Assembly: GCF_016862915.1 (NCBI RefSeq)
Contig: NZ_BONW01000010.1
Span: forward strand, 62,001-126,000
DNA: 64,000 nucleotides
Source: Plantactinospora endophytica
GTDB taxonomy: Bacteria; Actinomycetota; Actinomycetes; Mycobacteriales; Micromonosporaceae
Direction of reading: 5' to 3'
Shown here: positions 27,255 through 38,234 of the stretch, in pieces
Layout: every line of letters begins with the position of its first letter
How positions within the stretch are numbered: position 1 is the stretch's first letter
Program-made: the position numbers and the translations under genes
The notes under the pieces: model-generated
What the model saw: the letters and a program-made list of their open reading frames with translations, nothing else
Database searches by the model: none
What the model was told of the DNA's origin: nothing

Positions 27255-27504
27255 AACCGCCGATCATCCGTCGCCGCCCCCGTCCGGGGCAACTCGACCG
27301 GCTCGGACACGCCGGGAGCAAACCGGATCCGTCTCGCGGCGGCTTCGAGTCGAGCGGGTCGTCCCGGACGTACCGGGTCGGCCGACCGAGAACGGATCAG
27401 GTGCGCCGGGTCCTCCGAATTCCGCCCGCCAGGTTGCTGATCGCCCGTTTGAACCTGATTGGGGCGGGAAGGCCCCGGCAGCGCGGACGAGGGAGGTGGG
27501 CCCG

Positions 27505-28917
27505 GTGCGGGAGATGCAGGAGTGGCTGGCCGCGGGCGGGTCCGGGCTCCCGGGACCGGATCGGATCGTGTCGGCGGAGAGCACCGGGCGGGTACTGCTG
27601 GCCGTGGCGTCCCGTGCCGTCCGGGGCCGGGACTGCGCGGACCTGGGGTACCACCCGCTGCTGTCCCGCTTCCGGGGCGCGCCGGAGGCGGTCCGCCGGG
27701 CCGCGCTGACCCGGGCGGCACTCCGGTCGGCGCTCCCCGCCGAGCAGGCCGGTGCCGTCGACGCCGAACGGGTGGCCCGGTGGATCGTGCAGCACTATCC
27801 GCCGCGCTGGTACCCGGGCGTGGTGGTCGGCTCACCACACGGCGCGGCCGTACACCTGGCCACCGCGATGGGCGTGCCGTGGCTGCCGGCCGGCTTCGAC
27901 GTGGCGGTGCAGTGGCCGGGCGGCCAGGTCGACAAACCGGCCGAGGCGGCGGCGTACGGCAGCCAGCTTGCGGCCCGGCTGATCCGGCACAACCCCGGGG
28001 TACGGGTGCGGCAGGTGCACGATCCGGCCGCTCGGGGCGTACTGGCCGGCTCGACGGTGTCCCTGGTGGTCCGCTGGCACCGGCTGCCGGACGCCTACCA
28101 GGAGTTCCTCGGCGGCTGTCTGGCACCGGGCGCACCGGTGCTGCTGCTGCGCGACGTGCGGACCTGGCCGGTACTCGACTCGGGCGGCGGGCACACCTTC
28201 CAGCTCGGTGCGCCGGCCAGCGGGCTGGAGCCGGCCGACTTCGGCCCGGACAGCGAGGTGCTTCCGCAGGTGCTCCGAGGTGCCGGCGGGGATGGTGCGA
28301 GCTGGGACGCCCCGGCGGGCGGCCGACCCGGGTACGCCGAGCAGGGCGTCGAACCGGGCTTCGAGAGCAGCCTGCTCGACTGGGTACGCGGGGCCGGCAG
28401 CCCGCTGCACCGGGTGCTGTTCCCGGGCCCGGACGCGCTGAGTGCGGCTGCCGCCGACGTCTACCGGAGCTGGTTGCGGGCGGCCGGCAAGAGTGGTGAC
28501 CGGTGCGTGGTGGAGTGCGGGCGGCTGATCGACCCGTGGCAGGTGGTCCGGGCCGGGCTGGTGCCGTACTGGTGCGAGAACGCCACCCAGCGCAGTGTGA
28601 CCGGCGCGGAGTGGTGGTTGGCCGGCAGCGCGCCGTTCAGTTCGCTGGACGTGCTGCCCGAGCCGCCCGGACTGCGTTCGCCGGCCCTCGCCGGGCTGCC
28701 CCAGTGGCTGGCGGTTGCCTCGTTCGGGCGCCGCCGCCGGGCGGTCGACCGGGTCGCCGCCCGGGGCTATCCGGTGACCTCGGTGGCCACCCGGCACGCC
28801 ACCGAGGTGCTCCGGGGCCAGCCCTACGACCTGCCGGCGCCCGCGCCGCTGCGCATGGTGGAGGCGCTGGCCGGGCTGCGGGCCAGCGGCACCCCGCAGG
28901 GCCTGCTGGTCTGCTGA
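27505..28917 (+). CDS. Unrecognised 470-aa protein
   Basis: The product is soluble with no signal peptide. It has a helical N-terminal region (STGRVLLAVASRAVRG, VRRAALTRAALRSALPAE), a central alpha/beta-looking part (GVVVGSPHGAAVHLATAMGV, STVSLVVRWHRLPDAYQEFL, APVLLLRDVRTWPVL) that could be a Rossmann-like or hydrolase-like fold, and a C-terminal region rich in Trp and Cys (VVECGRLIDPWQVVRAGLVPYWCEN). GGAGG lies 8 nt before the GTG at 27505; an ATG 9 nt further on is the alternative. It stands alone. The pattern is that of a real gene, but no family can be named. Confidence 0.7.
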   Translation: MREMQEWLAAGGSGLPGPDRIVSAESTGRVLLAVASRAVRGRDCADLGYHPLLSRFRGAPEAVRRAALTRAALRSALPAEQAGAVDAERVARWIVQHYPPRWYPGVVVGSPHGAAVHLATAMGVPWLPAGFDVAVQWPGGQVDKPAEAAAYGSQLAARLIRHNPGVRVRQVHDPAARGVLAGSTVSLVVRWHRLPDAYQEFLGGCLAPGAPVLLLRDVRTWPVLDSGGGHTFQLGAPASGLEPADFGPDSEVLPQVLRGAGGDGASWDAPAGGRPGYAEQGVEPGFESSLLDWVRGAGSPLHRVLFPGPDALSAAAADVYRSWLRAAGKSGDRCVVECGRLIDPWQVVRAGLVPYWCENATQRSVTGAEWWLAGSAPFSSLDVLPEPPGLRSPALAGLPQWLAVASFGRRRRAVDRVAARGYPVTSVATRHATEVLRGQPYDLPAPAPLRMVEALAGLRASGTPQGLLVC

Positions 28918-29356: not shown

Positions 29357-30493
29357 ATGTTCGGACAGATCACCACCACACCACCGGCCGAACGCGGGCT
29401 GGAGGACCTGGACGCGGCGGCCCTGGCGTACGCGGCGCGGATCGCCGGCCTGCCACCGGAACGCCGGCAGGAGGCCCGGGACGACCTCGTCCGGTTCGCC
29501 CTGCCGTTCGCCGGCCGGTTGGCCCGGCGCTACCGGGGCCGGGGCGAACCGCTGGAGGACCTGGAGCAGGTGGCCCGGTTGGGGCTGGTGAACGCGGTCG
29601 ACCGGTACGACCCGGAACGGGGTTCGTTCACCGCGTACGCCGCGATCACCATCGTCGGCGAGATCAAGCGACACTTCCGGGACCGTACCTGGGGAGTGCA
29701 CGTACCCCGGCGGCTGCGTGACCTGATCCTGGAGGTCGGCCAGGCGACGGCAGCGCTGACCAGCGAGCTGTCCCGGTCGCCCAGCGTGGCCGAGTTGGCC
29801 GCCCGGCTGGAGACGCCGGAGGAGGAGATCCTCGCGGCGCTGGAGTCGGCGGCCGGCTACAGCCCGGCGTCGCTGAACGCACCGGTCGGCGGGGAGAGTT
29901 CGGCGGAGTTCGGCGACCTCGTCGGCGAGTCCGACACCGACCTGGAGTCGGTGGACGACCGGGTGACGGTGAGCGGGCTGCTCGGCCGGCTGCCCTGGCG
30001 GGAGCGGCGGATCCTCGCCATGCGCTTCTACGGCAACCAGACCCAGGCCGAGATCGCCGCCCGGTTCGGTATCTCGCAGATGCACGTCTCCCGGCTGCTC
30101 TCCCGGGCGCTGACCTGGCTGCGGCAGGCGATGCTGGCCGACTCGCCGGCACCGTGGCAGGCCGGAGGGGCCGAGGCGGCCGGCCAGCCGGCCCGGCTGT
30201 CGGTGCGCGAGGTGGGCGAGCGGGTGGTGGTCGAGGTGACCGGGGAGATCGACCTGGACACCGCCGAACAACTGCGCCTGGCGGTGGTCGAGGCGGTCGC
30301 CGGCCGGCATCCGGCGGAGGTCGCGATCGACCTGACCGACGTGGCGAAGTTGGACGGGCCGGCGCTGGCCGCGCTGGTGGCCGGCCGGGACGCCGCCCAC
30401 CGTGCCGGGGTACGGTGGCGGCTCGCTCGGGCGCAACCCGTGGTCCAGCATTCGCTCAGCGCCGCCGGCCTGGTCGCGCTGCCGGCGGACTGA
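29357..30493 (+). CDS. SigB/F-type sigma factor fused to a C-terminal STAS domain
   Basis: The 378-aa protein has sigma region 2 at about 40-125 (DDLVRFALPFAGRLARRYRG, EDLEQVARLGLVNAVDRYDP, FTAYAAITIVGEIKRHFRD), region 3 at 126-200 and region 4 at 205-260 (LPWRERRILAMRFYGNQTQ, ISQMHVSRLLSRALTWLRQ). After a short linker, residues 281-376 form a STAS fold (VVVEVTGEIDLDTAEQLRL, VAIDLTDVAKLDGPALAALV). In anti-sigma antagonists the phosphoserine site reads DSSGL; here it is D333-G-P-A-L337, so the serine is absent. The ATG at 29357 has GGGGGAGG upstream. It would control a stress or developmental regulon; no anti-sigma gene lies beside it. Confidence 0.88.
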   Translation: MFGQITTTPPAERGLEDLDAAALAYAARIAGLPPERRQEARDDLVRFALPFAGRLARRYRGRGEPLEDLEQVARLGLVNAVDRYDPERGSFTAYAAITIVGEIKRHFRDRTWGVHVPRRLRDLILEVGQATAALTSELSRSPSVAELAARLETPEEEILAALESAAGYSPASLNAPVGGESSAEFGDLVGESDTDLESVDDRVTVSGLLGRLPWRERRILAMRFYGNQTQAEIAARFGISQMHVSRLLSRALTWLRQAMLADSPAPWQAGGAEAAGQPARLSVREVGERVVVEVTGEIDLDTAEQLRLAVVEAVAGRHPAEVAIDLTDVAKLDGPALAALVAGRDAAHRAGVRWRLARAQPVVQHSLSAAGLVALPAD

Positions 30494-30535: not shown

Positions 30536-32572
30536 TCATCGCCGGTCCTCCCCGTCGTCCTGCTCGTCGTCGTCGGCAGGGGCCCGGCCGGTCCGCCACC
30601 GCGGACTCTCCGGTCCACCCCGGGCGGCGTCGTCGACGCCCTCGTCCGGCTCGCTCGGCTCGAACGCCGGCCGGCGTACCTCGTCCGGCTCCGGCACCTC
30701 GATGGGCCGGGCACCGGACCGGGCCGGTGGATGGTGCGCGACGGCCGCCTCGGCACCGTGCGCGCCCTCCGGCGCGGCGACCTCGGCCTCCGGGTGGCGA
30801 ACCTCGTGCCGCAACTCGTCGCGGATCACCTGTGGCGGTCGGGTCGACCGCTGCGGCAGGTCCCGGCCCAGGTCCGCGACGAGCGGCCCGTACTTGTCGT
30901 CGAAGGCGGGGCGTTCGGAGCGGATCCGGGGCATCCGGTCGAAGTTGCGCAGCGGGGGTGGGCAACTCGTCGACCACTCCAGGGAGTTGCCGAAACCCCA
31001 CGGGTCGTCCACGTCCACCATCCGGCCGAACCGCCACGACTTCCAGACGTTGTAGAGGAAGAACAGGGTGGAGGCGCCGAGCACGAAACTGCTGACGGTG
31101 GAGATCACGTTCAGCACGGTGAAACCGTCCGTGGGCAGGTAGTCCGCGTAGCGGCGGGGCATGCCCTCGTTGCCGAGCCAGTGGTGCACCAGGAAGGTGC
31201 CGTGGAAGCCGAAGAACATGGTCCAGAAGTGCACCCGGCCGAGCCGCTCGTCGAGGAGCCGGCCGGTCATCTTGGGGAACCAGAAGTAGACCCCGGCGAA
31301 GGCGGCGAAGACGATGGTGCCGAAGAGTACGTAGTGGAAGTGGCCGACCACGAAGTAGGTGTCGGTGGTGTGGAAGTCGACCGGCGGGCTGGCCAGCAGC
31401 ACCCCGGTCAGGCCGCCGAAGAGGAAGGTGACCAGGAACCCGATCGAGAAGAGCATCGGCGTCTCGAAGGTCAACTGGCCCTTCCACATCGTGCCGATCC
31501 AGTTGAAGAACTTGACCCCGGTCGGTACCGCGATCAGATAGCTCAGCCAACTGAAGAACGGCAGCAGCACCTGGCCGGTACCGAACATGTGGTGCGCCCA
31601 GACGGTCATCGAGAGGATCGTGATCGCGATGGTCGCGGCGACGATGCCCTTGTAGCCGAAGATCGGCTTCCGGCTGAAGACCGGGATGATCTCGGTGATG
31701 ATGCCGAAGAACGGCAGCGCCACGATGTAGACCTCGGGATGGCCGAAGAACCAGAAGAGGTGCTGCCAGAGCAGCGGCCCGCTGGTGGCGGGGTCGTAGA
31801 CGTGCGCGCCGATCCGCCGGTCGGCGTAGAGGGCCAGCAGGGCGGCGGCGAGCAGCGGGAAGACGAGTACCACCAGCAGGGCGGTGAAGAGCATGTTCCA
31901 GGTGAAGATCGGCATCCGGAACATGGTCATCCCGGGGGCCCGCAGGGTGAGGATGGTGGTGATCAGGTTGACGGCGCCGAGGATCGTGCCGAGTCCCGAC
32001 AGGACCAGCCCGATCACCCACATGTCCGGGCCGATCCCCGGCGAGTGCTGGTCGCGGCTCAGTGGCGCGTACGCCGTCCAGCCGAAGTCCGCCGAACCGT
32101 TCGGGGTGAAGAAGCCGAGCAGCACGAGCGAGCCGCCGAGCAGGTAGAGCCAGTACGCCAGCGCGTTGAGCCGGGGGAACGACACGTCCGGGGCACCGAT
32201 CTGGATCGGCACCACGTAGTTTCCGAACGCGAAGGCGAGCGGGGTGGCGAAGAGCAGCAGCATGATCGTGCCGTGCGCGGTGAAGAGCTGGTTGTACTGC
32301 TCGGTGGAGAGGAACTGTAGCCCCGGGTGGCCCAGTTCGGCCCGCATCAGCATCGCCATCACGCCGGCGACGATGAAGAAGCCGAACGCGGTGGTCAGGT
32401 AGAGCAGGCCGATCTGCTTGGCGTCGGTGGTGCCGAGCAGCTTGATCAGGTGGGCGCCGGGGACCGCCTTGCGGACCGGACCGGGATAACCGCCGGACCG
32501 GGCGGGGGCCAGGATCAGTGGCCTGCGCTCGCGCCCGGGCTCGGTGACCACCCGTTTCGGCATCTTGCTCAC
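30536..32572 (-). CDS. ctaD: Cytochrome c oxidase subunit I
   Basis: The 678-aa heme-copper oxidase subunit has twelve helices and the full ligand set: [13 protein letters not shown] (low-spin heme His), [19 protein letters not shown] (CuB His and the cross-linked Tyr), WAHHMFGTG (CuB histidines) and [11 protein letters not shown] (heme a3 and a His). It reduces oxygen and pumps protons in the aa3 branch. The C-terminal 110 residues form an acidic, Glu/Asp/Pro-rich cytoplasmic tail, longer than usual for the family. The start is the GTG at 32572 (VSKMPKRVV); the ATG 9 nt downstream is possible. Other ctaC/E genes are not nearby, so this is a solitary copy. Confidence 0.95.
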
Positions 32573-32680
32573 CCCGTACCCGATTTCCGCCAGAACGAGG
32601 GGTGGCTACCCGGTTATCCAACGGCAAAACCGGCAGGTCGCCAAATTCCGCTCTCTGTGCCCCTAACGGGTGAAACCGGG

Positions 32681-33133
32681 CTACCGGCCGCGACGCCGCC
32701 CGGTGAGCGCGCCGAGCCCGATCATGGCAATCCCGAGAACCAGGTGCAGCCAGTTGTCCGCGTCGTCCACCGGCAGGAAGTTCGCCAGGCTCTCCTTCTC
32801 GATGGTGATGCCGTACACGAACAGCACCAGGTAGACGGCGCCGCCGCCGACCAGGAAGGTCCGCGCGCCGGTGGCCGTCCGGGCCAGCGCCAGCCCGATC
32901 ACCCCGGTGACCAGGTGTACGAGGTTGTGCAGCACGGAGACCTCGAAGAGCCCGAAGAGCCGGGCGTCGGACAGGTGTCCGGCCAGCCGCATGTCGTCGT
33001 AGTTGCTGGTGATCTCCGGAATGAAGCCGAGCACCCCGAGCGCGAGGAAGACGACCGAGACCGCGATCGCCGCGTTGCTCACCGGTGACCGGCCGGTGTG
33101 TGGCCGGGAGACTGTCGAACTGGCTCTGTGCAC
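32681..33133 (-). CDS. DUF4383 membrane protein
   Basis: The 150-aa protein has four helices and DUF4383 landmarks: LGVLGFIPEITSNYDDMRLAGH, LFGLFEVSVLHNLVHLVTGVIGLALA, ARTFLVGGGAVYLVLFVYGI and NWLHLVLGIAMIGLGAL. DUF4383 proteins are small membrane proteins often beside stress or respiratory genes; no activity is known. I chose the GTG at 33133, with GGAGG 10 nt upstream; a GTG nearer the first helix (VSNAAIAVS) is the alternative. It lies 108 bp upstream of ctaD on the same strand. Confidence 0.8.
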   Translation of the reverse strand: MHRASSTVSRPHTGRSPVSNAAIAVSVVFLALGVLGFIPEITSNYDDMRLAGHLSDARLFGLFEVSVLHNLVHLVTGVIGLALARTATGARTFLVGGGAVYLVLFVYGITIEKESLANFLPVDDADNWLHLVLGIAMIGLGALTGRRRGR

Positions 33134-38124: not shown

Positions 38125-38234
38125 ACCGGTCGGGATCGTTCTCCCACTGGAACGGGTGGTTTGTCCACCCGGCGCTCGGGTAGTAGCGCAGGTCCGTACC
38201 GGCGCGGGACCGGTATCGGCGGGGGAGAGGCGAC

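What the first reader, a model, noticed from the sequence alone, without database searches (positions are those of the whole stretch)
29357..30493. Sigma factor carrying its own STAS domain with the regulatory serine missing
Sequence: regions 2-4 of a SigB/F-type sigma factor are followed in the same frame by a complete STAS fold (residues 281-376), and the DSSGL phosphorylation site of anti-sigma antagonists is replaced by DGPAL (333-337). Known: in SigB/F systems the STAS antagonist and sigma are separate proteins competing for an anti-sigma kinase. Inference: the fusion may titrate the anti-sigma in cis, or act as a locked, unphosphorylatable partner-binding module, giving a sigma factor that frees itself.
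Basis: partly seen in the sequence, partly recalled or inferred. Interest (0 to 1): 0.75.

Follow-up and report, generated by a model that had tools for sequence, protein, structure and literature searches.

The report
Stress sigma factor with docking tail
This is a real gene for a stress-response transcription factor that carries a partner-docking domain on its tail, a design already described in a related soil bacterium, but here the inhibitor protein known to grip that tail is missing from its usual place.

Summary
Window 29357-30493 (+) encodes one 378-residue protein: SigB/F/G-type sigma regions 2-4, then a true STAS fold with DGPAL at the phospho-serine site. It is no sequencing join: the fused frame is intact in 7 of 7 genomes of the genus. 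The architecture is published: sigma-SsdA of Actinoplanes missouriensis, whose inhibitor SipA (STAS + RsbW-like) grips the fused STAS (PMC10733313). So "frees itself" is not supported; the tail is where the inhibitor holds on.

New here: (1) none of 90 STAS-bearing homologues has the serine; 78 have Ala. (2) The window's genus (7 of 7) lacks sipA at the locus yet keeps the STAS under purifying selection. (3) Some Micromonospora show the mirror image: STAS gone, sipA kept. (4) sigma-SsdA's published promoter motif stands before the neighbouring ctaD in 38 of 38 loci scanned and before sipA in 23 of 27, which predicts a linked target and feedback. (5) Strict motif sites in the genome mostly precede stress-type genes.

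Verdict: a SipA-less variant of a known system; what now binds the tail is unknown.

The parts
29357..30493 (+). ssdA orthologue: sigma factor with C-terminal STAS domain, 378 aa
   Evidence: synteny; tree
29465..30136 (+). sigma regions 2-4 (residues 37-260), SigB/F/G type
   Evidence: dN/dS 0.011 within the genus
30197..30484 (+). STAS domain (residues 281-376)
   Evidence: fold match to SpoIIAA/RsbV/RsbS; dN/dS 0.235 within the genus
30353..30367 (+). DGPAL at the place of the DSSGL phosphorylation motif (residues 333-337)
   Evidence: invariant in 7 of 7 genomes of the genus; no Ser or Thr at residue 334 in 90 of 90 STAS-bearing homologues
30536..32572 (-). ctaD, cytochrome c oxidase subunit I; one of four ctaD-like copies in the genome
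   Evidence: COX1 539 bits; copies
32607..32630 (-). strict match to the published sigma-SsdA promoter (GTTT-n14-CGGGTA), beginning 58 bp before the ctaD start
   Evidence: relaxed form in 38 of 38 ctaD loci scanned; absent within 300 bp of the three other ctaD copies
32573..32680 (.). ctaD/DUF4383 gap where Micromonospora relatives carry sipA; only 108 bp here, no sipA
32681..33082 (-). DUF4383 membrane protein gene
   Evidence: PF14325, 155 bits
38159..38182 (+). second strict sigma-SsdA-type promoter match in the window, before a GAF-ANTAR reading frame
   Evidence: start of that gene not settled

Best explanation
The gene is the orthologue of sigma-SsdA (sequence, synteny and tree). It most likely directs RNA polymerase to GTTT-n14-CGGGTA promoters of an oxidative/general stress regulon, including the neighbouring extra ctaD copy (inferred from the conserved motif). 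In relatives with SipA the fused STAS is a docking handle for SipA's RsbW-like domain (published for A. missouriensis). Because the phospho-serine is missing in every homologue examined, the handle cannot be released by phosphorylation at the classical site (inferred). Where sipA sits at the ctaD-type locus it carries the same promoter motif, so SipA is probably made under sigma-SsdA's control as negative feedback (inferred). In the window's genus sipA is gone from the locus while the STAS is still under purifying selection, so the handle probably keeps a job: most likely it is held by some other, unlinked RsbW-like protein, less likely it serves only folding or stability (inference).
For: Published system with the same domain borders (sigma 37-260, STAS 282-377, 379 aa; PMC10733313). 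The sigma-domain tree places the window in the 42-row group (SH-aLRT 92; inner group of 34 rows 99) that holds the ctaD-linked loci. No Ser or Thr at the phospho-site in 90 of 90 STAS-bearing homologues. No sipA between ctaD and the next gene (DUF4383 or GT1) in 7 of 7 genus genomes; the best SipA-like match in the window's genome is 34% identical and unlinked, and Pfam finds no STAS in it. STAS dN/dS 0.235 in the genus (0.228). Motif within 160 bp before ctaD in 37 of 37 loci and sipA in 23 of 27, but ssdA 0 of 45, up473 0 of 35, GT1 0 of 32, GT2 0 of 22. Genome-wide 21 strict matches against 1 for the pattern read backwards; reading frames behind them include OsmC, a ferritin/Dps-like protein, SelR (MsrB), Clp, WhiB and oxidoreductases. 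The three other long sigma matches of the genome are RpoD type, all below the SigBFG cut-off.
Against: No expression or binding data for this genus. The STAS has diverged far more than the sigma (55% against 97% identity to Micromonospora), and its dN/dS is somewhat higher in three SipA-less sets (0.235, 0.413, 0.293) than in three SipA-bearing sets (0.189, 0.188, 0.127), which also fits slow decay of an orphan domain; two g7 paralogue sets show 0.674 with and 0.605 without a SipA neighbour, so SipA state does not explain all of it. The Micromonospora value depends on the rows and residues taken (0.128, 0.189). SipA's RsbW part stays equally constrained (dN/dS 0.275 against 0.280) in Micromonospora whose sigma lacks the STAS, so SipA may also act without the handle, against a strict handle model. 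The 4 sipA loci without the motif are Actinoplanes-type or related. Sister genomes carry further SigF-like sigmas that could read the same promoters; the window genome is a 90-contig draft.
Confidence: 0.6

Rival explanations
1. After loss of SipA the STAS is a passive relic: the sigma is unrestrained, controlled only by how much is made, and the STAS is decaying slowly.
For: STAS identity to SipA-bearing Micromonospora 55% while the sigma is 97% identical; the motif is DGPAL only in this genus among the homologues aligned; the mirror group shows that a sigma without STAS survives, with sigma dN/dS 0.022.
Against: Intact frame in 7 of 7 genus genomes; dN/dS 0.235, well below 1; the fold is modelled well; STAS is also kept in other lineages without sipA at the locus (g34, g11, g36, g2).
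Confidence: 0.25
2. The STAS is part of the working sigma (folding, dimerisation or RNA polymerase contact) rather than a regulatory handle.
For: In A. missouriensis the suppressor L372P in the STAS apparently costs the sigma its function (PMC10733313).
Against: Seven distinct Micromonospora SsdA proteins lack the STAS altogether but keep sigma constraint and the motif before ctaD. L372P may simply unfold the protein.
Confidence: 0.1
3. Sequencing or assembly error that joins two genes.
For: Nothing found.
Against: Fused frame intact in 7 of 7 genus genomes and in 69 of 70 matching places among 121 family genomes; codon-level purifying selection across the domain.
Confidence: 0.01

Closest known systems
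sigma-SsdA / SipA of Actinoplanes missouriensis (AMIS_54240 / AMIS_54230; Tezuka et al. 2023, PMC10733313)
   Same: Same sigma + STAS architecture, length and domain borders; the authors name Micromonospora orthologues with ctaD between ssdA and sipA, the locus seen here without sipA.
   Different: No sipA at the locus and no close SipA elsewhere in the window's genome; STAS motif DGPAL instead of the commoner DA(A/G)G. The motif before ctaD and sipA and the missing serine are not mentioned in the main-text sections and passages that I read; the supplement was not seen.
Classical partner switch: RsbV/RsbW/sigma-B and SpoIIAA/SpoIIAB/sigma-F
   Same: STAS fold, SigB/F/G-type sigma, RsbW-like anti-sigma in relatives.
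   Different: Antagonist fused to the sigma; phospho-serine absent; in A. missouriensis the anti-sigma binds the STAS of the sigma protein, not the sigma domain.
Mycobacterial SigF-RsbW-RsfA/RsfB
   Same: Actinobacterial SigF-type stress sigma with a GTTT/GGGTA-like promoter (recalled).
   Different: Separate proteins, no fused STAS (recalled; PMC7693655 seen only as a search listing with the start of its abstract).

Membership tests
SigB/SigF/SigG sigma factors | Regions 2, 3, 4 and a score above the SigBFG model cut-off | tested here: met
   254 bits against cut-off 234.35; Pfam r2, r3, r4
sigma-SsdA orthologues | SigB/F sigma with C-terminal STAS in one frame | tested here: met
sigma-SsdA orthologues | Conserved gene neighbourhood and tree position | tested here: met
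   ssdA-ctaD-(sipA)-DUF4383-GT1-GT2; 42-row group SH-aLRT 92, inner 34-row group 99. The A. missouriensis sequence itself was not in the tree.
SipA-sigma-SsdA two-protein system | A SipA (STAS + RsbW-like) partner encoded at the locus | tested here: not met
   absent in 7 of 7 genomes of the genus; G004 has a second SsdA-like/SipA-like pair elsewhere
Phospho-switched STAS anti-sigma antagonists (RsbV/SpoIIAA) | STAS fold | tested here: met
Phospho-switched STAS anti-sigma antagonists (RsbV/SpoIIAA) | Phosphorylatable Ser/Thr at the DSSGL site | tested here: not met
   G334 in the window; no Ser/Thr in 90 of 90 homologues; 7 of 7 other STAS domains examined in the genome keep Ser/Thr
sigma-SsdA orthologues | Transcribes GnTT-n14-CGGGTA promoters | tested here: inconclusive
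   motif conserved before ctaD and enriched genome-wide; no transcription data

The most novel reading that the evidence does not exclude
Handle and inhibitor of the sigma-SsdA lock come apart in both directions. In the window's genus the unphosphorylatable STAS handle outlived SipA and is now held by a different, unlinked RsbW-like protein (a rewired partner switch without phosphorylation of the handle), while in some Micromonospora SipA outlived the handle and now grips the sigma directly. The family would be a natural series for watching anti-sigma recognition change.
Probability: 0.3. Interest if true: 0.65.

Novelty: new variant of a known kind. Interest (0 to 1): 0.45.

Why it matters
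The published system left an open question: how can an anti-sigma silence a sigma by holding an appended domain rather than the sigma itself? The lineages found here (STAS with SipA, STAS without SipA at the locus, SipA without STAS) are natural controls for it. The missing serine in every homologue examined suggests that release does not use the classical phosphorylation site, and the conserved promoter motif before sipA and ctaD predicts a negative feedback loop and a stress-specific oxidase copy, both directly testable.

Tried and rejected
Rejected: sequencing join. Rejected: plain region 4 extension (fold). Rejected: autoregulation of ssdA through the same motif (0 of 45 loci within 160 bp; 0 of 18 within 400 bp; a farther or different promoter is not excluded). 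The simple sigma-70 promoter and terminator scan around the gene found nothing.

Limits. The full-length AlphaFold model (pLDDT 74.3, pTM 0.33) does not fix the STAS relative to the sigma, so its place on the holoenzyme was not mapped; no complex could be predicted with these tools. Class-wide search (296 genomes): 5 genomes matched at E <= 1e-74, the 3 with the STAS covered all lie in the same family, the other 2 match over the sigma only; more distant or independent fusions would be missed at that cut-off. The tree is quick, without bootstrap, 44 of 87 inner branches under 80; 12 changes of the SipA label were counted, of which gain and loss cannot be told apart. There 12 identical or near-identical rows were left out, L122 bore no label, and L001, L015, L018 and L021, whose sipA reads as a remnant or broken, were labelled as SipA present. 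The adjacency count (40 of 70 places with a SipA-like gene within 10 kb) used a SipA list cut at about 1e-25, so weak neighbours may be missed; 16 of the 30 places without a neighbour were also viewed for synteny. The 38 ctaD loci hold one duplicate (37 distinct upstreams). Gene names behind the 21 motif sites rest on the nearest plausible frame; some sites may lie inside genes. Literature: searches; among the listings and abstract starts shown, only PMC10733313 describes a sigma-STAS fusion; only open-licence PMC papers are covered, and only this paper (sections) and PMC10120452 (passages) were opened.

Full report
What is there. The reading frame at 29357-30493 (+) is intact and encodes 378 residues. 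Pfam finds sigma regions 2, 3 and 4 and then STAS at 283-373, all above cut-off; NCBIfam scores it above its cut-off as SigB/F/G type. The STAS part alone gives a confident model (pLDDT 88.8, pTM 0.80) whose nearest solved structures are SpoIIAA, RsbV and RsbS and kin, several of them in complex with their anti-sigma kinases. DGPAL stands where those proteins carry DSSGL (motif recalled), at the start of the second long helix.

It is known. Tezuka and co-workers described sigma-SsdA of Actinoplanes missouriensis, 379 aa, sigma 37-260 and STAS 282-377, and its inhibitor SipA, 243 aa, STAS plus RsbW-like domain (PMC10733313; abstract and the sections on SipA, SsdA, interaction, structure prediction, regulon and discussion read). 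By two-hybrid SipA binds the STAS of sigma-SsdA, while no binding to its sigma domain was detected; the authors regard the sigma as hyperactive in a sipA deletion; the sigma uses 5'-GnTT-n14-CGGGTA promoters, two of them shown in vitro; ssdA mutant zoospores are more sensitive to peroxide. The authors call it the first sigma with such a domain and note orthologues in Micromonospora with ctaD between ssdA and sipA. In the main text 'phosphorylat' occurs four times and 'serine' not at all, and the passages shown do not concern the STAS of sigma-SsdA; the supplement was not seen. A search for SsdA, SipA and sigma together gave three papers, of which only this one is on the subject.

Is the window gene an orthologue? 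Gene order in the window is up473 (+), ssdA (+), ctaD (-), DUF4383 (-), two glycosyltransferases (-), SecA-like (+); Micromonospora noduli has the same order with sipA between ctaD and DUF4383. On a quick tree of the sigma part the window lies in a group of 34 rows (SH-aLRT 99) that holds the Micromonospora sequences. The A. missouriensis sequence itself was not available to place. The window's genome shares its family code with G108, whose contig and SsdA are those of Micromonospora zingiberis (L013), so the family is that of Micromonospora; its genus was not named.

The serine. Of 97 distinct homologues aligned, 7 have no STAS; in the other 90 the residue at the phospho-serine place is Ala 78, Gly 7 (the 7 genomes of the window's genus), Pro 2, His 1, Met 1, Val 1, never Ser or Thr; at the next residue one has Ser and one Thr. 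As a control, 7 other STAS domains of the same genome (of 9 others found; two not examined) keep Ser or Thr there. SipA's own N-terminal STAS lacks Ser and Thr at that place in 62 of 63 readable proteins (L184 has Ser; L001 is out of frame there), while the N-box E-x3-N-x3-H of its RsbW part is kept in 63 of 64 and G-R-G of the G2 box in 61 of 64. Ala at this site acts as the unphosphorylated, active form in another STAS switch, SypA S56A (PMC10120452, passages read).

SipA is missing in this genus. The genus comprises 7 held genomes; all 7 carry full-length SsdA, the other six at 92-98% identity, and none has sipA at the locus. In the window only 108 bp separate ctaD from DUF4383. The best SipA-like match in the window's genome is 34% identical and unlinked, and Pfam sees only its ATPase part; G005 has no match at 1e-8, and G004 has a separate second SsdA-like/SipA-like pair. 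Other loci viewed without sipA: G016, G053, G072 (g11), G041 (g36), G007 (g2), and G039, G082, G114 (g34), where the next gene recognised after ssdA is GT2. In G042 the sipA place holds a free-standing STAS protein with an intact DSSGV. In the family sample 40 of 70 SsdA-like places have a SipA-like gene within 10 kb.

The mirror image. Seven distinct Micromonospora SsdA proteins (L013, identical to L157; L015, L016, L017, L019, L020, L027) stop at 290-292 residues, without the STAS, while sipA remains next to ctaD except in L015, which has only a remnant. On the quick tree six of them group together and L027 stands apart, with weak support. Their sigma part is still strongly constrained (dN/dS 0.022), and SipA's RsbW part is as constrained in six of these loci as in 13 relatives with the STAS (0.275 against 0.280; its N-terminal STAS 0.559 against 0.413).

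Selection on the tail. Pairwise dN/dS of the STAS is 0.235 in the window's genus, 0.413 and 0.293 in two other sets without sipA at the locus, 0.189, 0.188 and 0.127 in three SipA-bearing sets, and 0.674/0.605 in two paralogue sets of g7 with and without a SipA neighbour; the sigma part is 0.011-0.042 in the six STAS-bearing sets outside g7. An earlier count with other rows and residues gave 0.228 for the genus and 0.128 for Micromonospora. So the tail is kept, with perhaps looser constraint where SipA is gone.

Promoters. The published motif has a strict match beginning 58 bp before the ctaD start in the window. In a relaxed form it begins 52-62 bp before the estimated ctaD start in 38 of 38 loci (37 distinct upstreams), with much of the spacer diverged. 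Counted within 160 bp, it stands before ctaD in 37 of 37 loci, sipA in 23 of 27, DUF4383 in 9 of 21 (not in the window), and before ssdA in 0 of 45, up473 0 of 35, GT1 0 of 32, GT2 0 of 22, SecA 0 of 6. The 23 sipA loci include all six STAS-less loci with intact sipA; the four misses are L022, L023, L025 and L209, where the match in L022 and L025 was a second SipA-like gene, and the copy next to ssdA in those two does have the motif. The genome has four ctaD-like genes; the three others lack the motif within 300 bp. Genome-wide, GTTT-n14-CGGGTA occurs 21 times against 1 for the pattern read backwards. Besides ctaD, 20 downstream frames were scanned: they include OsmC, a ferritin/Dps-like protein, SelR (methionine sulfoxide reductase), a Clp ATPase, WhiB, a Rieske protein, an F420-type oxidoreductase, a short-chain dehydrogenase, MOSC and GAF-ANTAR; three had no Pfam match. 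In this genome the three other long sigma matches (L102, L103, L104) are RpoD type and below the SigBFG cut-off, so SsdA is the best candidate to read these sites; sister genomes have further SigF-like sigmas.

Mechanism and verdict. Shown: the architecture, its orthology by locus and tree, the missing serine, the two opposite losses, the conserved motif. Published for a relative: SipA grips the STAS. Inferred: feedback through sipA, a stress-specific oxidase copy, and a new or no partner for the tail in this genus. It is a SipA-less variant of a known system, of moderate interest.

Noticed in passing
window 32607-32630 (-): sigma-SsdA-type promoter motif before ctaD, conserved at the same distance in relatives, while the three other ctaD copies of the genome lack it within 300 bp.
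   Followed up: yes
L013, L015, L016, L017, L019, L020, L027: Micromonospora SsdA proteins without the STAS domain; sipA still present except in L015.
   Followed up: partly
L208:2512-2928: Free-standing STAS protein with intact DSSGV at the place where sipA sits in relatives (genome G042).
   Followed up: partly
L244 (G004:C1:293000-297500): A second, diverged SsdA-like/SipA-like pair in a sister genome of the window's genus.
   Followed up: no
window 27496-28917 (+): Conserved 473-aa protein upstream of ssdA with no Pfam or NCBIfam match at the cut-offs used; it lies beside ssdA in several genera.
   Followed up: no
window 38159-38182 (+): Second strict stress-promoter match, before a GAF-ANTAR reading frame (putative RNA-binding antiterminator).
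   Followed up: partly
L001, L015, L018, L021: sipA reads as a remnant or broken in four Micromonospora records; may be real decay or assembly error.
   Followed up: no
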